Shown in pieces: positions 27,433 through 35,104 of a stretch of 35,161 nucleotides of DNA. The stretch lies in NCBI GenBank assembly GCA_001805245.1, contig MHEU01000076.1, forward strand, positions 6,549 through 41,709, read 5' to 3'. Source of the DNA: Nitrospirae bacterium RIFCSPLOWO2_02_FULL_62_14 (GTDB lineage: Bacteria > Nitrospirota > Nitrospiria > Nitrospirales > Nitrospiraceae). The position numbers were made by a program, and so were the translations under genes. Below the pieces are notes generated by a model. The model was not told where the DNA came from, did not search any database, and worked only from the letters and a program-made list of their open reading frames with translations. Within the stretch, counting starts at the first letter, position 1. Every line of letters starts with the position of its first letter.

Positions 27433-28587
27433 TCAAGCGGTTTTGAAGCACCGTTTCAGCAGCAGAGGCGAGAGCGCGGTTGTCAGCGCAACGACCAGCA
27501 GGATCGCGCCGTATTCGGCTGTGGAGATGACGGCGGAGGCGAGCCCGACGCCGGCAAAGATCAAGCCGACTTCGCCGCGGGGGAGCATGCCGATGCCCAC
27601 GGCCCAGCGATTGATCTTTCCGCCGGCGCCCAGCCCCGCGGCCAGCTTGCCGAGGACGGCGGCGACCATGAGCCCGCCGGCCATGAACAGGACGGGCCAG
27701 TTGTGCGCATTAAACGGATTGAAGTGGCTCAGATCAACGGCCACCCCGATGAGTGCGAAGAAGATCGGCACGAAGATATCGGCGACCGGCTTGATGGTGT
27801 CTTCAATGTGGGCCTGGTGCTCTGTTTTCGCAAGGATGAGCCCGGCCGCAAAGGCTCCGATCAATGCGGCGACATGCAGGAGCTCGGCGACATAACCGAA
27901 CAGCAGGACCGGAACCATCGCTGCCACGATGAGCCGGCCACGACTGCGCATCCGATTCACGACACGGGTGAACCAATGCGCATACCGGATGCCGGCCACG
28001 ATGGCTACACTAAGAAACAAGAGTGCCAGGGCGGCGGTGCGGATCACGTCGAACCAGGACACGGTGCCGGACTCGGCAAGTCCCATGATCACGGACAGGA
28101 TGACGAGACCCAAAATGTCATCGAGCACGGCGGCGCCCAGAATAATGTTGCCTTCCGCCGTATTCAGTTTACCCAGGTCATGCAGCACACGGGCCGAGAA
28201 TCCCACGCTCGTGGCGGTGAGGGTGGCTCCGATAAAGATGGCCTGGAGCTGACTCATGTGCAGAAGAAGCGCGAGACCATAGCCCAGTGCAAAGGGGGTG
28301 ACGACCCCGATGGTGGCCACCGCGGCCGCCCTCCAGCCTACCGTCAGAAACGATTGGAGGTCCGATTTGAGACCCACCTCAAAGAGCAGCAGCATGACTC
28401 CGATTTCGCCCATCAGCTTGAGGGTCTGAGTCGGCTCCACCCAGCCCAGCACGCTGCCGCCGATCAGGACCCCGGCGAACAATTCGCCCAGCACCGCTGA
28501 CTGTCCGATGCGGACGGCCAGCTCCACCATGACGCGAGTGCAGACGAGAATCGCGATCAGGCTCAGAATGAATTGCTGTAGTTCCAT
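27433..28587 (-). CDS. CPA2-family cation:proton antiporter
   Basis: Started at ATG 28587 (MELQQFILSLIAIL) the product has 384 residues and about 12 helices. The CPA2 double aspartate is in VLDDILGLVIL, the exchange site, and LLLFEVGLKSDL in the cytoplasmic loop before helix 4 is typical of Kef/NhaS-type antiporters. GMLPRGEVGLIFAGVGL near the C-terminus is the conserved helix with an Arg-Gly-Glu motif. There is no KTN (RCK) domain, so it resembles the NhaS3/GerN group that exchanges sodium or potassium for protons. It is divergent from the sensor kinase. Confidence 0.92.
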   Translation of the reverse strand: MELQQFILSLIAILVCTRVMVELAVRIGQSAVLGELFAGVLIGGSVLGWVEPTQTLKLMGEIGVMLLLFEVGLKSDLQSFLTVGWRAAAVATIGVVTPFALGYGLALLLHMSQLQAIFIGATLTATSVGFSARVLHDLGKLNTAEGNIILGAAVLDDILGLVILSVIMGLAESGTVSWFDVIRTAALALLFLSVAIVAGIRYAHWFTRVVNRMRSRGRLIVAAMVPVLLFGYVAELLHVAALIGAFAAGLILAKTEHQAHIEDTIKPVADIFVPIFFALIGVAVDLSHFNPFNAHNWPVLFMAGGLMVAAVLGKLAAGLGAGGKINRWAVGIGMLPRGEVGLIFAGVGLASAVISTAEYGAILLVVALTTALSPLLLKRCFKTA

Positions 28588-28698
28588 CGTGGCGTCAGGC
28601 ACAGGATTGTTGTGATGAAGACAGGGGGCACGATACTGCATGGCGCGCGCGAACGCAATCGCAGAACGCAGCGGGTTCCCCGGCGTTCATAAATCCAC

Positions 28699-28710: not shown

Positions 28711-29733
28711 ATGAATTCGCGGACGCCGAGCACCCGGGACAGCCTGCCGGCCCTGAGCATTGCGCTGGGGTTGGCTGTCGGCGTGTTCATCCTGGACGCG
28801 ATGACGCCCCTCGGGATGGCTCCGCAAATGTTGTACGCCGTCGTGCTCCTGGTTTCCGTCTGGACCTATAACCGGCGAATCGTCAAGCTGCTGGCGTGGC
28901 TCTGCACGGCATTGACGGCGGCAGGCTTAATCTTCGCATCGGGGACCCAATACGAAACGGCCATCTTCAACCGGGTGGTCAGCCTCAGTCTCATCTGGTT
29001 GACGGCGGTCCTGGCGCTGCTGTACATGCGCTCGGAGGAACGGCTGCGGCAGGTCAATCTGAATCTCGAGCAGCTTGTCTCGGAGCGCACTGCGGCGCTG
29101 ATCCAGGCCGTCGAACAACGTGAGCGGCTCGGCCGGGATCTCCATGATGATATTTTGCAGTTGCTCTATGCGGCGGGGTTGAACCTGAAGGCGGCGGTCC
29201 CGCCGGTGACACGCTGTCCGCCGGATGTGGCCGGCCAGATCCGGCACACGATGGGCGAACTTGAATTGGCCATGCAACGACTCCGTGAGTATATCGCCGG
29301 ACCTCGGATACCGGCCGGTGGCGAGCCGCCGGTCGGCGTGGCGCTCGCCAACCTGGTCCAGAACATGGCGGTGTCCGATCGCCCCCGGTTCAACCTGAAC
29401 CTGCAACCAGGGTTGTCGGCGGTGTCTCTGCCGCGCGCGCAGACCGAGCACGTGATGCATATCGTCCGGGAGGCCCTCAGCAACTGTGCGCGGCACTCCC
29501 GCGCCACGCAGGGCCTGGTGACCGTGCAGCGCGACAACGGAGTGCTGCAGATCGAGATCAACGACGACGGGATCGGATTCGATCCGGACGATGCCCGGCG
29601 CGACGGGCACGGTCTGGCCAACATGTCGGCACGGGTTGAAGAGATGGGCGGAATCCTGAGCATCGCTTCTTCGCCCGGACAAGGAACGCGGATCATGGTC
29701 CGGGTGCCCTGTGCGGAGGAGGTTCGTCCATGA
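28711..29733 (+). CDS. NarL-group sensor histidine kinase (HisKA_3)
   Basis: The 340-residue product has three to four N-terminal membrane helices (about 14-30, 38-52, 58-76, 90-106), a coiled coil (110-138) and the HisKA_3 motif LGRDLHDDILQLL with phospho-acceptor His145. The HATPase domain has REALSNCARHS (N-box) and NDDGIGFD with GHGLANMSARVEEMGG. There is no separate periplasmic domain, so the signal is probably sensed in or near the membrane. Its stop overlaps the response-regulator ATG (ATGA), so the two are made together. Confidence 0.93.
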   Translation: MNSRTPSTRDSLPALSIALGLAVGVFILDAMTPLGMAPQMLYAVVLLVSVWTYNRRIVKLLAWLCTALTAAGLIFASGTQYETAIFNRVVSLSLIWLTAVLALLYMRSEERLRQVNLNLEQLVSERTAALIQAVEQRERLGRDLHDDILQLLYAAGLNLKAAVPPVTRCPPDVAGQIRHTMGELELAMQRLREYIAGPRIPAGGEPPVGVALANLVQNMAVSDRPRFNLNLQPGLSAVSLPRAQTEHVMHIVREALSNCARHSRATQGLVTVQRDNGVLQIEINDDGIGFDPDDARRDGHGLANMSARVEEMGGILSIASSPGQGTRIMVRVPCAEEVRP

Positions 29734-30377
29734 GCGCGACGCGTCCCATCCGCATTCTTCTGGTGGACGATCATGAGGTCGTCCGTGTGGGGTTGAAAAA
29801 AGTTCTGGAGGCGGATCCGCAGGTGGTCGTGGCGGGAGAGGCGGCGACAGCCGGTGAAGCCGTCACGCGCGCGCAAATCGATCGTCCCGACGTCGTGCTG
29901 ATGGATATCCGGCTGCCGGATGGAGACGGCATCCAGGCGTGCCGCGACATCCTCGCAACCTGCCCGGACGTCCGCGTGCTTTTCCTGACGTCGTTTGCGG
30001 ACGACGAGACCATGCTGGCCGCCGTGCTGGCCGGCGCGCACGGGTTCTGCGTGAAGCGGATGGATGTCGAGAGCCTGGTTCAGTCCATCAAACGGGTGGC
30101 CGCCGGGGAATCCGTCCTGGATACGGTCGCCACCCAACGCATGCTGGAGTGGGTCAGGGGCAGTGGAGTCTCCCTGGCCGGGCCGCAGTCCCTGTCGCCT
30201 CAGGAACAACGCATTATCGCGCTGGTCGCCGAGGGCAAGACCAACAAGGAAATCGCCCAGGAACTGCAATTGAGCCCCAATACGGTCAAAAATTACCTGT
30301 CCAACGCCTTCCAGAAGCTTCAAATCACGCGCCGCGCCCAAGCTGTCGCCTTATTTCATAAGCCCCCGCACAGATAG
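29730..30377 (+). CDS. NarL/FixJ-type response regulator
   Basis: The 215-residue product has a receiver domain (6-125) with acidic pair Asp13-Asp14, phospho-acceptor Asp59 (VVLMDIRLP), Thr near 87 (LFLTSF) and Lys near 109 (CVKRMD). A LuxR-type HTH follows (150-210) with LSPQEQRIIALVAEGKTNKE and the recognition helix SPNTVKNYLSNAFQKLQI. It binds DNA as a dimer after phosphorylation by the upstream kinase. It lies just before a cluster of small secreted proteins, which are plausible targets. Confidence 0.94.
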   Translation: MSATRPIRILLVDDHEVVRVGLKKVLEADPQVVVAGEAATAGEAVTRAQIDRPDVVLMDIRLPDGDGIQACRDILATCPDVRVLFLTSFADDETMLAAVLAGAHGFCVKRMDVESLVQSIKRVAAGESVLDTVATQRMLEWVRGSGVSLAGPQSLSPQEQRIIALVAEGKTNKEIAQELQLSPNTVKNYLSNAFQKLQITRRAQAVALFHKPPHR

Positions 30378-30522: not shown

Positions 30523-30807
30523 ATGAAGGACTCAGATCACGATCACGTTCAGAGCCAGCGAAACCCAAAAGGGCCGGGGAAGGCTCGGGGAAATCCTGCG
30601 CGCGCGCTTGTTGAAATCGCGGTGTTCAACGTATTGCAGGAACAGGAGCCGATGCTGATCGAGCAACTGGTCCGCATCCTGCCGGACTATACCTGGCAGC
30701 AGGTGTTCAACGCGGTGGATGTTCTGAGGAGAGACGCGCTGCTAACGGTGACACAATCGGATCAGTTGAGTTATCGGGTCGGGCTCAATCATGCCGGCCA
30801 TTGCTAA
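30523..30807 (+). CDS. Small winged-helix-like protein, 94 aa
   Basis: Started at ATG 30523, the first 30 residues are charged and His/Asp/Pro-rich (KDSDHDHVQSQ). Residues 37-90 (LVEIAVFNVLQEQEPMLIEQ, then VRILPDYTWQQVFNAVDVLRRDALLTVTQ and SYRV) have the helix-turn-helix-wing pattern of a small winged-helix domain such as those of the MarR/ArsR classes, but no family match is certain. It may be a DNA-binding regulator for the following small genes. It is the first gene of the small-gene run. Confidence 0.6.
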   Translation: MKDSDHDHVQSQRNPKGPGKARGNPARALVEIAVFNVLQEQEPMLIEQLVRILPDYTWQQVFNAVDVLRRDALLTVTQSDQLSYRVGLNHAGHC

Positions 30808-30824
30808 CAGCAGGGAGGGTGGCA

Positions 30825-31028
30825 ATGGAGTGCGAACGATGCCACGCCATGATGCTCGAGGAAGCGTTTGAAGATATCGGGGCCGACAGCTGGAGTATGA
30901 AATTCCACGGCTGGCGATGTCCGGTCTGCGGCAACGTCCTTGATCCGGTCATCCTCGAAAATCGCTCGTTATTCTCTCGAGCGATGGGGGCCGGAGCGAG
31001 GAGAAGGCATAACGCGCGGGCATTATAA
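30825..31028 (+). CDS. Small zinc-ribbon protein, 67 aa
   Basis: The start at ATG 30825 follows AGGGAGG. The protein has two Cys pairs, MECERC (Cys3, Cys6) and RCPVCG (near 33-36), a treble or ribbon zinc site, followed by DPVILENRS. A paralogue at 32150-32362 shares GWRC-x2-CG-x3-DPVI and NRS. The tail is basic. Such ribbons bind nucleic acid or protein; the role here is unknown. Confidence 0.75.
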   Translation: MECERCHAMMLEEAFEDIGADSWSMKFHGWRCPVCGNVLDPVILENRSLFSRAMGAGARRRHNARAL

Positions 31029-31632: not shown

Positions 31633-31886
31633 GGTCACGTGATGGAATTCCCGTACTCCCATGGTTTTTCCGATTTCAGAATGCCGCGGAGCGCACGATA
31701 GGCTGCCACACGACACGTCGCTTCACTGATTTCGTGCTCATCGCCACCGCCGCGCTTGCCATGTTCAGCCAGGGTCAGCTCGAGAGGTAAAGACGAGGAA
31801 GTTATTATCGGCGAGGAGGATGTCTGTTATCACGCACCAGGAGAGATGGTCATGATGCGAAATACCTTCGTTATGGAGGATTGGCC
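31633..31886. other. Intergenic gap of about 250 bp
   Basis: No gene is supported. The frame starting at ATG 31854 overlaps the next gene in another frame. If one A were added in the GCGAAAT run near 31859-31862, that ATG would join the next gene and give it a basic signal n-region (MMRKYLRYGG). The gap should carry a promoter, but no clear pair of boxes was seen. Confidence 0.5.
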
Positions 31887-32150
31887 ATGCTCATCATTTT
31901 CCTTGCAGGAGCGGGAGGAGGAAAACAGGCGCATGCCGCAACCGATCCGAACCCGGCTTCCGTCTCTCCGCAATTGCTGAAAGGGGAAATCATCATGCTG
32001 TCCGAAGAGGTGTGCGTGGTCAAGGATGCAACGGGAAAGACCATGATGTTCAAAATCAACAAGGAAACGAAGATCGGCAAATCGGTGAAGGAGGGGCAAA
32101 TAGTCGAAGTGTCCGCTTCGGCCGACGGGGTTGCCCTTTCCATTAAGTGA
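31887..32150 (+). CDS. Small secreted beta-domain protein 1, 87 aa
   Basis: The start at ATG 31887 follows GGAGG. The product has a short export signal (MLIIFLAGAGGG, cut near HAATD), though it lacks the usual basic residue. The 55-residue domain has the pattern KGEIIMLSEEVCVVKD, T-G-K, K-x-T-K-I, VKEGQIVEV, ADGVALSIK. Three other proteins nearby (32543, 33991, 34844) share this layout. It looks like a small OB- or CusF-like beta-barrel, and the family is not known to me. The stop overlaps the next ATG by one base. Confidence 0.75.
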   Translation: MLIIFLAGAGGGKQAHAATDPNPASVSPQLLKGEIIMLSEEVCVVKDATGKTMMFKINKETKIGKSVKEGQIVEVSASADGVALSIK

Positions 32151-32362
32151 TGGATTATCCGCGCTGCCAGGGCTTGATGGTCGGAGAAGTCTTCAACGGA
32201 ATGAGCGGCGACCCGCGGGTGAGGGGGGCTGCAGGCTGGCGGTGTCTGATCTGTGGCGAGATTGTCGATCCGGTTATTGCGGCGAACCGGTCCGCTCCGA
32301 ATGTTTCGAACGAATCTGCTGCAAGCTTACGGCATTGGCTCCGGCGCTGGCGTCGCTACTAA
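32150..32362 (+). CDS. Zinc-ribbon paralogue with a lost first cysteine, 70 aa
   Basis: The start at ATG 32150 overlaps the previous stop (TGATG). The sequence MDYPRCQGLMVGEVFN, then GWRCLICGEIVDPVIAANRS, parallels the 67-aa protein at 30825. In this copy the first Cys of the N-terminal CxxC pair is Tyr (YPRC), so the site has three Cys only. It may have lost zinc binding. The C-terminus is basic (RHWLRRWRRY). Confidence 0.7.
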   Translation: MDYPRCQGLMVGEVFNGMSGDPRVRGAAGWRCLICGEIVDPVIAANRSAPNVSNESAASLRHWLRRWRRY

Positions 32363-32406
32363 GGCGTCACCGCAATGGCACGGGGCGAGACAAAAGGGGA
32401 TGAGCC

Positions 32407-32535
32407 ATGATTCCAACGCTGTTCGGCAAATGGAAGGTCTGGCACCTGCTCGTAGTGGTAACAGTGTTGGTCGTCACAGCCGTGTCGCTGGCTCTCGCCG
32501 GACCGGCGGCCGGCATCGAGTCCGCAGTGAAGTGA
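32407..32535 (+). CDS. Single-helix membrane peptide, 42 aa
   Basis: A frame of 42 codons starts at ATG 32407 after GGGGATGAG. It encodes a short basic start (GKWKVWH), a hydrophobic stretch (LLVVVTVLVVTAVSLALAG) and a small polar end (IESAVK). It is either a single-pass membrane peptide or a cleaved signal peptide of a degraded gene. It fits exactly between two genes in the same direction. Confidence 0.5.
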   Translation: MIPTLFGKWKVWHLLVVVTVLVVTAVSLALAGPAAGIESAVK

Positions 32536-32542
32536 GGCGCGA

Positions 32543-32917
32543 GTGGAACCGCCGAGATTGCTCATTCAGGACATGGGCGTGACGGTCGCCCCCGGTCGGA
32601 TTGTGCATCATATGGCGCCTTGGTCCTGGGGATGGCTGCTCGTCGTCCTTGCGCTGCTCCTGCTGGGTGCGGGAGAAACAGGCCGATCTCAAGCCGGATC
32701 TGCCTCAAGGTCGGAGGCGGCGTCGTTTCTTCTGGTCAAGGGTCAGTTGATGTCGCTGTCGCCGGAGTCCTGTGTCATCAAAGACGCGAAGGGGGAAATC
32801 ATTGCATTCAAAGTGGATGAGCAAACCAGCATGGTGGATTTTGTGCACGAGGGCGATTTGGTCGAGGTCTATGCCTCACCTGAAGGCCTGGCCCGGTACG
32901 TCTTCAAAGCGTTATGA
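32543..32917 (+). CDS. Small secreted beta-domain protein 2, 124 aa
   Basis: The GTG start at 32543 gives 124 residues; ATG 32573 or 32612 (MAPWSWGWLLVV) is also possible. A membrane helix or signal (WGWLLVVLALLLLGAG) precedes the same domain as in the 31887, 33991 and 34844 proteins: VKGQLMSLSPESCVIKDAKG, then FKVDEQT, HEGDLVEVYASPEG. One Cys sits at the same place as in protein 1. Exported or anchored. Function unknown. Confidence 0.7.
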   Translation: MEPPRLLIQDMGVTVAPGRIVHHMAPWSWGWLLVVLALLLLGAGETGRSQAGSASRSEAASFLLVKGQLMSLSPESCVIKDAKGEIIAFKVDEQTSMVDFVHEGDLVEVYASPEGLARYVFKAL

Positions 32918-32930
32918 CTATCAGGTGCCG

Positions 32931-33398
32931 GTGAAGACTTTCTCAGAACGGCATATCCGAAAACATACAGGTCCCAGTCCGGTGACCGTCGGCCTTTCAC
33001 GCCTTGCAGCTCTGCTGGTGCTGGCGGTTGTGCATGGGTGCAGCACCATGCCGGAAACGACGGGCACCGGAACGGTGCTGCACGTTGCGATTCACGATCA
33101 TGTGTCGCCCGACATGCTCATCGCCCATCTCGGCGACGAGATTCGCTGGCAGAACGTCAGCGAGAAGACAATCCGCATCGGCCTGCTGGGAAGCCGCGCT
33201 TATGACCATGTGTCCTGCCAGCACGGATTTTCGTGGCTTGGTCATCTGCGTGATTTCGCCACGATCGATCCGGGCGACTACGTCAGCTTGTGTTTTTCAC
33301 ACACCGGCATCGTTCGGTACAACGTCTGGCTGGATGCCGACGATCTTCGCGGGTCCATGAGTCCGACGGCCTCCATCAAGATTGAGCGGGCGTCCTAG
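32931..33398 (+). CDS. Cupredoxin-like lipoprotein 1
   Basis: The product is 155 residues from GTG 32931; GTG 32925 and GTG 32982 are alternatives. A hydrophobic segment leads to a lipobox-like VVHGC (Cys near 33). The domain reads HVAIHDHVSPDMLIAHLGDE, IRWQNVS, VSCQHGF and VSLCFSHTG with RYNVW, which fits a greek-key cupredoxin: N-terminal strand, GDE-x-RWxN strand, and a C-terminal C-F-S-H-x-G loop that could bind copper. A paralogue lies next (33463). Confidence 0.7.
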   Translation: MKTFSERHIRKHTGPSPVTVGLSRLAALLVLAVVHGCSTMPETTGTGTVLHVAIHDHVSPDMLIAHLGDEIRWQNVSEKTIRIGLLGSRAYDHVSCQHGFSWLGHLRDFATIDPGDYVSLCFSHTGIVRYNVWLDADDLRGSMSPTASIKIERAS

Positions 33399-33462
33399 AT
33401 GCTTGGATTAGGATCCACGAGAGAGGGAATGTCGCATAACTACGGCACGGAGGAATGATTCC

Positions 33463-33885
33463 ATGACATGGCAATTGGAGGCGTATCGAGGCGTGATTGT
33501 TGCCACGGCACTGCTGACTCTGGTGGCCGGATGCCAGTGGCTGCCCACTGCCGTTTCTCCTGTCCCGATCCATTATGTGGCGATCGAAGACGGGGTCTCG
33601 GACGCAGATCTTCGAGCAAAGGCGGGCGAGGAAGTCCGCTGGGTCAATGTGCGAAAGTCCCCCGTGTCCGTCGTCTTCAACGGGTTGCAGCCCGGCCAGT
33701 TGTCGTGCAAACGAGGATTCTCCGCTTCCGCGGATGCGCACCTCACCGCCGTCATGCATCCGGATGACAACGCGAGTCTCTGCTTTTCGGCGGCCGGCCG
33801 CCAAACCTACCGCGTCCTTGACGCGCAGCGACCGGGCCTCGAGCTCAACCATGAGGTCACCGTGGAGATCGTGCCGGCGCCGTGA
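33463..33885 (+). CDS. Cupredoxin-like lipoprotein 2
   Basis: The 140-residue product starts after GGAGG and has a lipobox LVAGC (Cys24). It shares the fold plan of the preceding protein: HYVAIEDGVSDADLRAKAGE, VRWVNV, LSCKRGF and ASLCFSAAGRQTYRV. The His after the second Cys in the sister protein is Ala here, so a copper site, if any, is lost or changed. The two cysteines kept in both may form a disulfide. Tandem gene duplication is likely. Confidence 0.72.
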   Translation: MTWQLEAYRGVIVATALLTLVAGCQWLPTAVSPVPIHYVAIEDGVSDADLRAKAGEEVRWVNVRKSPVSVVFNGLQPGQLSCKRGFSASADAHLTAVMHPDDNASLCFSAAGRQTYRVLDAQRPGLELNHEVTVEIVPAP

Positions 33886-33990
33886 GATGGCAGGAACGAA
33901 CGATCGAGGTCAGGTCCTTGTGAGAACGGTACCGGCGGTGAATTTCATGGGCATCCCTCCCTGGCACTCATGGTATTCCGTGGGTGTCGA

Positions 33991-34338
33991 CTACTGCAGT
34001 GCTTTGAGCAGGGTGGCCGCATGACCATCGGCGGCCATCTGAACGTCAACCTTGTCTCCCGCCTTGATCCGTTTGTCGAGCACGGTATCCTTGTTCACGC
34101 GCAGGTGGACTTCTTTTCCGCCGGCATCTTTGACGATATAGAGGTCGCCGTCGATCTTCAGCAATTGACCCTGCAGGATGCCGGTGCCGTTCATCGAGGG
34201 GGCCGGCTTGGCCGAGTCGGATTGAGGCGCGGGGTTGGTGGCGGCGGGAAGCTCGATCAGATTGGGAAACACCCAGATGTTGGCGATCACCAGAACGATG
34301 GCAGCGATGAAGAGAGTCCAGGCATTCGCATTTCGCAT
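33991..34338 (-). CDS. Small secreted beta-domain protein 3, 115 aa
   Basis: The 115-residue product has an N-terminal anchor or signal (LFIAAIVLVIANIWVF), a Pro/Ala/Ser linker (30-50) and the shared domain: LQGQLLKIDGDLYIVKDAGG, VNKDT, IKAGDKVDVQMAADGHA. The cysteine seen in copies 1 and 2 is Tyr here. It is on the opposite strand to copies 1 and 2 and converges on the cupredoxin pair. A strong hairpin separates it from the upstream gene at 34401. Confidence 0.75.
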   Translation of the reverse strand: MRNANAWTLFIAAIVLVIANIWVFPNLIELPAATNPAPQSDSAKPAPSMNGTGILQGQLLKIDGDLYIVKDAGGKEVHLRVNKDTVLDKRIKAGDKVDVQMAADGHAATLLKALQ

Positions 34339-34361
34339 AACGGTGCCCTCCTTCAGACAAA

Positions 34362-34386
34362 GGGGCGCGGGGTTCGCCCGCGCCCC
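34362..34386 (-). terminator. Strong hairpin between two small minus-strand genes
   Basis: GGGGCGCGGG and CCCGCGCCCC form a perfect 10-bp stem with a GTTCG/CGAAC loop. On the minus strand TTTGTCTG follows. It lies after the stop of the 64-aa gene and before the start of the 115-aa gene. Confidence 0.75.
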
Positions 34387-34400
34387 GTGGCGTCAAGGAT

Positions 34401-34595
34401 TTACTTGCCGCCCTTGTCGTCCTTCTTCTCGTCCTTTGGCTCGTCCGCGAAGACCTTCGGCCCATCGGGCTTTTTGGGCTCATCCGTCGGAGACGGCGTG
34501 GTTGGAGAAGGTGGATCACCGGCGAATGTCGCAGCCGTTAGCGGTCCGAAACTGAGCAGCAGGGGAAAAGCCAAGAGTCCTACGAACTTTTTCAT
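34401..34595 (-). CDS. Small secreted Asp/Lys/Pro-rich protein, 64 aa
   Basis: The start at ATG 34595 follows AGGAG. Residues 1-26 are a signal peptide (MKKFVGLLAFPLLL, cut near TFAGD). The remaining 38 residues are nearly all Pro, Asp, Lys, Glu, Ser and Thr (DEPKKPDGPK, DEPKDEKKDDKGGK), a disordered, highly charged peptide that might bind ions or protein partners. No family is recognised. Confidence 0.7.
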   Translation of the reverse strand: MKKFVGLLAFPLLLSFGPLTAATFAGDPPSPTTPSPTDEPKKPDGPKVFADEPKDEKKDDKGGK

Positions 34596-34773
34596 GGCAC
34601 GACTCCTTTTGTTGATGGTGAAGACGGAAACTGCCATGACGATTCACAAGTACCAGGGCAGACCTGCCGGCTACAATGGATAAATTGGGGGGAACCGCGG
34701 CAGGAATTGTCCAGACGCTAGGCGCCGGGTCGTTCACCATGAGGGAGTTCCGCTTGTGCGACCGATGGAACGG

Positions 34774-34803
34774 AAAACGGGCCGACCGTTGAGGGCCGGC
34801 CCG
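34774..34803 (-). terminator. Rho-independent terminator after the last gene
   Basis: On the minus strand CGGGCCG and CGGCCCG form a 7-bp stem with a 12-base loop and are followed by TTTTCC. It lies 41 bases after the stop codon of the 86-aa gene. Confidence 0.7.
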
Positions 34804-34843
34804 CCTCCGTCGGAGAGGAACATGACGGGAAGGTTCGAGTTTA

Positions 34844-35104
34844 CTACTTGGCCTTCTCAATCACCAAACTTCCGTCCTCCTGGACCGTGAGGTTGATCTT
34901 GTCCCCGACCTTGATATCCTTGAGCTTCTCCGGCTTTCGGGCGACGAAATCCCGCGGACCCGCTGCCGATTTCAGGGTGACGGTGCCCTTCATGGCGTCC
35001 ACTTTTTCCACGGTCCCGGAGACGATCTCCCGGGCCGCCTCGCTGCTCAGCGCGAGGCCCATCACGAGCAGGAACATGACGGCTGCCAATCCGATCTTCT
35101 TCAT
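34844..35104 (-). CDS. Small secreted beta-domain protein 4, 86 aa
   Basis: The start at ATG 35104 follows GGGAGG. A clear signal peptide (MKKIGLAAVMFLLVMGLALS, cut after SEA) precedes the shared domain in its most divergent form: VSGTVEKVDAMKGTVTLKSA, then KLKDIKVGDKINLTVQEDG, ending VIEKAK. The G-x-V-x-x-V-D start and the VGDKI turn recall CusF/DUF5666-type small periplasmic barrels. The product has no Cys or His, so it is unlikely to bind copper in the CusF way. Confidence 0.78.
   Translation of the reverse strand: MKKIGLAAVMFLLVMGLALSSEAAREIVSGTVEKVDAMKGTVTLKSAAGPRDFVARKPEKLKDIKVGDKINLTVQEDGSLVIEKAK

What the first reader, a model, noticed from the sequence alone, without database searches (positions are those of the whole stretch)
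31887..35104. Four paralogues of an unnamed small secreted beta domain in 3.2 kb
Proteins at 31887, 32543, 33991 and 34844 share a 55-residue domain: G-x-hydrophobic start, VVKD or TLKS turn, a charged strand, GD/GQ-x-V-E/D-V and an ADG or EDG turn. Two read plus and two minus, so duplication and inversion occurred in place. Two have a Cys in the second strand, one Tyr, one neither. They follow a NarL-type two-component system. This is the best candidate for an undescribed envelope system in the window.
Basis: partly seen in the sequence, partly recalled or inferred. Interest (0 to 1): 0.75.

Follow-up and report, generated by a model that had tools for sequence, protein, structure and literature searches.

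The report
Small exported OB-fold proteins, stress-linked
Three of the four small exported proteins belong to one unnamed OB-fold family that is common and often multiplied in Nitrospira relatives, and the fourth is a copper-chaperone-like protein without copper ligands; their neighbours suggest, without proving it, that they help the cell envelope tolerate stress.

Summary
The four ORFs exist at the given places, but the family claim is only partly right. P1, P2 and P3 are clear homologues (0 of 1000 shuffles reach any pairwise score). P4 is not a demonstrable paralogue: it scores above Pfam's cut-off for CusF_Ec (PF11604) and lacks every CusF copper ligand. P1 and P2 are a local duplicate. 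P3 groups with a gene in another genome that shares its neighbour, so "duplication and inversion in place" is not supported for P3. Structure models give five-stranded OB folds for P3 and P4. No Pfam or NCBIfam model claims P1-P3. Profile comparison links them to ExtJ (95.6%) and weakly to the BOF/YgiW stress proteins (59%). Relatives occur in 125 of 147 sampled genomes of the same family (inferred Nitrospiraceae), with up to 22 domain matches per genome. Relatives sit beside two-component systems, a secreted Lys/Asp-rich peptide, cupredoxin-like lipoproteins and carbohydrate genes. Most likely reading: periplasmic OB-fold stress-tolerance proteins that work like YgiW/SipA under two-component control. 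Family and fold are supported by computation; export, regulation and function are inferred. New are the unnamed, lineage-expanded family and its recurrent pairing with the charged peptide.

The parts
31887..32150 (+). P1: 87-aa OB-domain protein; short signal-like N-terminus without a charged n-region
   Evidence: Shine-Dalgarno; homologous to P2 and P3
32543..32917 (+). P2: OB-domain protein with signal-anchor-like N-terminus; local duplicate of P1
   Evidence: sister to P1 with support 100/98
33991..34338 (-). P3: OB-domain protein with N-terminal hydrophobic segment; closest of the three to the family consensus
   Evidence: model pLDDT 83, above 90 across the barrel core; OB folds in PDB
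34401..34595 (-). Secreted Lys/Asp-rich peptide gene (start ATG about 34595), directly upstream of P3
   Evidence: relatives upstream of OB genes in 7 other genomes, same strand
34362..34386 (-). 10-bp all-GC hairpin between the peptide gene and P3
   Evidence: z -3.9
34844..35104 (-). P4: exported CusF_Ec-type OB protein without copper ligands; at the contig end
   Evidence: PF11604 32.3 bits against cut-off 27; model; residues
34779..34811 (-). Intrinsic-terminator-like hairpin with T run after P4
   Evidence: z -5.8, 0 of 200 shuffles
28711..29733 (+). Sensor histidine kinase (HisKA_3), candidate regulator
29730..30377 (+). NarL-type response regulator (receiver + GerE), candidate regulator
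32994..33398 (+). CUP1: cupredoxin-like lipoprotein
   Evidence: 44% identical to a gene in a related cluster of another genome (L107); no Pfam hit
33463..33885 (+). CUP2: cupredoxin-like lipoprotein, paralogue of CUP1
   Evidence: 35% to CUP1; weak plastocyanin profile, below cut-off
30801..31028 (+). ZnR1: zinc-ribbon-like protein
   Evidence: 42% to ZnR2
32147..32362 (+). ZnR2: zinc-ribbon-like protein, overlaps the P1 stop

Best explanation
P1, P2 and P3 are small exported proteins with a single five-stranded OB domain, from a family multiplied in Nitrospirota. P4 is a second, distantly related kind of small exported OB protein (CusF_Ec/ExtJ type) that has lost, or never had, the copper site. 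The most likely role is envelope stress tolerance, working like YgiW/VisP and SipA: a two-component system raises their expression under osmotic, envelope or toxic-ion stress, they go to the periplasm, and the barrel binds charged peptides or glycan pieces there. The family sequence similarity and the recurrent gene neighbourhoods are shown by computation; the OB fold is predicted at good confidence. Export, regulation by the neighbouring two-component system, ligand and stress role are inferred.
For: OB fold: P3 domain pLDDT 83 and P4 pLDDT 86; best Foldseek PDB matches for both include IF-1 and CusF. P3 against YgiW/YdeI profiles: 1nnx in PDB at 0.19, NF033674 2e-4 and PF04076 0.0033, both below their cut-offs, hhalign 59% over the whole domain against 0.7% for an unrelated control. 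Regulation pattern: OB genes lie by a two-component system in the window, in L104 and L116 (NtrC type) and in L107 (HisKA_3 + GerE). E. coli ygiW is divergent from qseBC and Salmonella ygiW is PreA/QseB-activated (PMC2653508). SipA is periplasmic, binds antimicrobial peptides and acts with OmpA (PMC6370654). Stress-type neighbours: Na/H exchanger (68% identical homologue in L104), OtsA (GT20), TreT, glycogen debranching enzyme, GT4, OmpA-domain protein, glucan-type GT2 in all three gammaproteobacterial loci, charged secreted peptide.
Against: No member reaches the BOF or stress_OB_fold cut-off, and no true BOF is found in 61 genomes of the phylum. hhalign 59% is not proof of homology. No expression, localisation or phenotype data. 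The closest profile is ExtJ, of unknown function. GT4 adjacency is a minority pattern (3 of 40 unselected GT4 loci), and most other neighbourhoods were fetched because they held OB genes. P1's export signal is weak.
Confidence: 0.5

Rival explanations
1. Metal chaperones of CusF type: the four bind Cu(I)/Ag(I) in the periplasm and pass it to a pump or to the cupredoxin-like neighbours.
For: P4 passes the CusF_Ec cut-off; CusF is among the top folds for P3 and P4; cupredoxin-like genes lie next door.
Against: CusF binds through His36, Met47, Met49 with Trp44 (PMC9302797). P4 has no His, Cys or Trp and one Met; P1/P2 Cys is Tyr in 82% of relatives; the family's two common His (63%, 73%) are R/K/K and H/V/L in P3/P1/P2. 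No CusCBA genes were noted nearby.
Confidence: 0.1
2. Carbohydrate-pathway accessory: the OB barrel binds oligosaccharide and assists a glycosyltransferase/exporter unit that makes a compatible solute or periplasmic glucan.
For: OB genes 16-90 bp from a conserved GT4, usually followed by an MFS transporter, in L109, L111, L112, L116, L121, L128, L138; overlap in L147; OB gene directly after a GT2 glucan-type synthase in three gammaproteobacterial loci; OtsA, TreT and debranching enzyme nearby.
Against: 37 of 40 unselected GT4 loci have no OB gene beside them; the window genome has no close GT4 relative; OB members have many other contexts.
Confidence: 0.2
3. ExtJ-like small protein of an electron-transfer or oxyanion-reduction system, acting with the cupredoxin-like lipoproteins.
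For: Best profile link is ExtJ (95.6% for the P1-P3 family, 85% for P4); cupredoxin-like genes adjacent in L108, L109, L110 and the window.
Against: ExtJ itself is of unknown function (PMC5877670); ext cytochrome genes were not seen near these loci; heme motifs are rare in the neighbourhoods; the cupredoxin-like proteins were not shown to hold copper ligands.
Confidence: 0.1

Closest known systems
ExtJ (NF040942), small exported protein of the Geobacter extHIJKLMNOPQS cluster
   Same: Signal peptide plus one small domain with KGxVxKIxGxxxxxKDxxGKExxxxV...KxGDKVE; hhalign 95.6% with the P1-P3 family, 85% with P4
   Different: Window members score below the 52.5-bit cut-off and relatives match only weakly; the Nitrospirota ExtJ proteins end in KKKAxEGC, absent here; no ext genes seen alongside
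BOF / NirD-YgiW-YdeI stress-tolerance proteins (PF04076, NF033674)
   Same: Exported OB-fold size and strand order, next to two-component genes; weak profile matches
   Different: Below both cut-offs; the BOF core (GxIxVxI with a downstream aromatic-Gly) is not shared; BOF not found in 61 Nitrospirota genomes
CusF_Ec (PF11604)
   Same: P4 exceeds the cut-off and models as OB with CusF among its matches
   Different: No copper ligand set in P4 or its orthologues; P1-P3 do not hit the model

Membership tests
BOF (PF04076) / stress_OB_fold (NF033674) | Score over the curated cut-off (25.8 / 35 bits) | tested here: not met
   P3 17.9 and 21.5 bits
BOF (PF04076) / stress_OB_fold (NF033674) | OB fold | tested here: met
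   Model and Foldseek, prediction only
BOF (PF04076) / stress_OB_fold (NF033674) | Profile-level homology | tested here: inconclusive
   hhalign 59%; control 0.7%
BOF (PF04076) / stress_OB_fold (NF033674) | Periplasmic location and stress phenotype | not testable with these tools
   needs experiments
CusF_Ec (PF11604) | Score over the cut-off (27 bits) | tested here: met
   P4 only: 32.3 bits, 27.6 in the genome search; one orthologue 30.5, another 19.9
CusF_Ec (PF11604) | Copper ligands His36, Met47, Met49 and Trp44 | tested here: not met
   P4 mature part has no His, Cys or Trp and one Met; ligands from PMC9302797
CusF_Ec (PF11604) | P1-P3 match the model | tested here: not met
   no hit up to E 10
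ExtJ (NF040942) | Score over the cut-off (52.5 bits) | tested here: not met
   P3 14.6, P4 27.1 bits; 12 of 18 relatives match weakly, best 2e-6
ExtJ (NF040942) | Profile-level homology | tested here: met
   hhalign 95.6%, from an ExtJ profile of only 5 sequences
ExtJ (NF040942) | Place in an ext cytochrome/porin cluster | tested here: not met
   window ORFs and neighbourhoods show no multiheme cluster

The most novel reading that the evidence does not exclude
Nitrospirota carry an undescribed envelope stress module: an exported OB-fold protein paired with a secreted, disordered Lys/Asp-rich (KKDEKKDxGG) peptide, with optional ligand-poor cupredoxin-like lipoproteins, under two-component control; the OB barrel binds the charged peptide, or both shield the periplasm in osmotic or drying stress.
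Probability: 0.2. Interest if true: 0.7.

Novelty: new variant of a known kind. Interest (0 to 1): 0.42.

Why it matters
Nitrospira and kin drive nitrite oxidation, and much of their envelope is hypothetical proteins. This gives one abundant, lineage-expanded set a fold, a superfamily (ExtJ/CusF_Ec-like OB proteins), recurrent partners and a testable role. It also shows a CusF-model hit without a copper site, a likely source of wrong "copper-binding" annotation.

Tried and rejected
Four-way paralogy: rejected for P4. In-place inversion of P3: not supported by the tree. Cys as a metal or redox ligand: rejected on conservation. Universal GT4-MFS-OB operon: looked strong in seven loci chosen for OB genes, but only 3 of 40 unselected GT4 loci had it. 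Sigma-54 promoters near the NtrC-linked islands: no match at the threshold used. PDB sequence searches gave nothing convincing. First genome-contig search with P3 alone found nothing, and the broad alignment was too diverse to scan. PHROGs matches are single and weak. Literature on this family in Nitrospira: none found in the held library.

Full report
What is there. The four ORFs are at the stated coordinates. P1 starts at ATG 31887 behind GGAGGA. The window is the end of contig C76 (C76:6549-41709, contig length 41709), so the region upstream of P4 is lost apart from 57 bp.

Are they one family? P1, P2 and P3 are: no shuffle of 1000 reached any of their pairwise scores. P4 is not, pairwise: Z 1.1 and 1.3 with P1 and P2 and 4.6 with P3. 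P4 scores 32.3 bits against PF11604 CusF_Ec, cut-off 27. Through ExtJ the two sets may still be remote relatives: hhalign A4-ExtJ 95.6%, P4 set-ExtJ 85%, A4-P4 set 45%, with an unrelated control at 0.7%. The P4 and ExtJ profiles rest on 3 and 5 sequences, so those numbers are rough.

History. In a 75-row tree P1 and P2 are sisters (100/98) and lie by a gene of genome G011. P3 groups with a gene of G031 (98/84). That G031 gene also has the Lys/Asp-rich peptide gene directly upstream, and a 68% identical Na/H exchanger homologue within about 2 kb; the window's exchanger is at 27433-28641. Only 58 columns support the tree, and P2 is a long branch. P1/P2 are thus a local duplicate and P3 most likely a separately inherited copy; the two strands need no in-place inversion. 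ZnR1/ZnR2 (42%) and CUP1/CUP2 (35%) are further local pairs.

Spread. A single-sequence search finds relatives in 125 of 147 genomes of the same family, with up to 22 domain matches in one genome; several proteins hold two domains. The family is inferred to be Nitrospiraceae because the protein of G073 is the same as that of a named Nitrospira record (L013 and L071). Across the phylum 111 of 246 genomes match the profile. Three gammaproteobacterial contigs also carry it. In this genome only P1-P3 match.

Fold. AlphaFold2 with 26 sequences models the P3 domain as five strands, mean pLDDT 83 and 92-94 across the barrel core. P4, with 3 sequences, models as five strands and a short helix, pLDDT 86. 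Foldseek matches are OB folds for both, with modest E-values (best 1.5e-3 and 1.4e-2), including IF-1 and CusF for both and YgiW for P4. This supports the fold, not a function.

Ligand sites. The CusF copper site is absent from P4 and its orthologues (PMC9302797). The P1/P2 Cys position is Tyr in 82% of 69 relatives, and two His common in the family (63%, 73%) are mostly absent from the window copies. A conserved metal site is therefore not supported.

Neighbourhoods. L107 (G002) holds a P3-like OB gene, a HisKA_3 kinase, a GerE regulator (35% to the window's), one zinc-ribbon gene and a cupredoxin-like gene (44% to CUP1). L104 and L116 have OB genes beside NtrC-type two-component genes. In L109 the order is NtrC, kinase, receiver-like gene, CUP, CUP, unknown, OB, GT4, OB, MFS, two unknowns, OtsA. 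Seven other genomes have the Lys/Asp-rich peptide gene upstream of, and on the same strand as, an OB gene, most within about 165 bp. All these loci except the GT4 sample were fetched through OB or CUP genes, so the rates are not unbiased. In the unselected GT4 sample 3 of 40 have an OB gene adjacent, above the well under 1% expected from gene density (my estimate), but a minority.

Transcription. A strong hairpin with a T run follows P4 (z -5.8), and a 10-bp GC hairpin lies between the peptide gene and P3 (z -3.9), so P4, the peptide gene and P3 may be separate units. No sigma-54 site was found at the threshold used.

How it most likely works. By analogy with YgiW/VisP (beside qseBC in E. coli; PreA-activated in Salmonella, PMC2653508) and SipA (periplasmic, binds antimicrobial peptides, acts with OmpA, PMC6370654 and PMC5636140), I infer exported OB barrels that protect the envelope under stress sensed by a two-component system. 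The osmotic and carbohydrate neighbours (Na/H exchanger, OtsA, TreT, debranching enzyme, glucan-type synthase) point to osmotic or drying stress rather than a metal. This is a "works like" claim; membership in BOF fails its cut-offs.

Verdict.

Noticed in passing
34401-34595 (-); L007, L017, L063, L097, L098, L101, L102: Secreted Lys/Asp-rich peptide with a DEKKDDKGGK tail, some relatives with two or three KKDEKKDxGG repeats, upstream of OB genes on the same strand in 7 other genomes.
   Followed up: partly
32994-33398 and 33463-33885 (+): Two cupredoxin-like lipoproteins of a family with no Pfam hit in 8 members; two invariant Cys beyond the lipobox Cys; present in 66 of 98 genomes.
   Followed up: partly
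30801-31028 and 32147-32362 (+): Two zinc-ribbon-like paralogues interleaved with the OB genes; one copy in L107 beside the regulator and cupredoxin-like gene.
   Followed up: partly
L109 8442-11317 and 40 further loci: A GT4 glycosyltransferase, usually followed by an MFS transporter, is strongly conserved (mostly 60-80% identity) in 86 of 144 genomes of the family but has no close relative in this genome.
   Followed up: partly
L006:3-902 (-), L037:1370-2287 (+): A ~300-aa gene of no Pfam family lies divergent to the OB/P4 cluster in G013 and to the P4 gene in G027.
   Followed up: no
32408-32536 (+): A 42-aa ORF with a hydrophobic stretch (MIPTLFGKWKVWHLLVVVTVLVVTAVSLALAG...) between ZnR2 and P2, seen in the DNA.
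   Followed up: no
31842-31890 (+): P1's signal-like start is unusually short; a second frame just upstream reads MMRNTF, so a different start or a sequence error is possible.
   Followed up: no
L077:1142-2089, L065:7695-8327, L074:1145-1873: OB relatives in frame behind a BON-like segment (L077) and behind CsbD-like segments (L065, L074), recognised by eye; both kinds are stress-associated.
   Followed up: no
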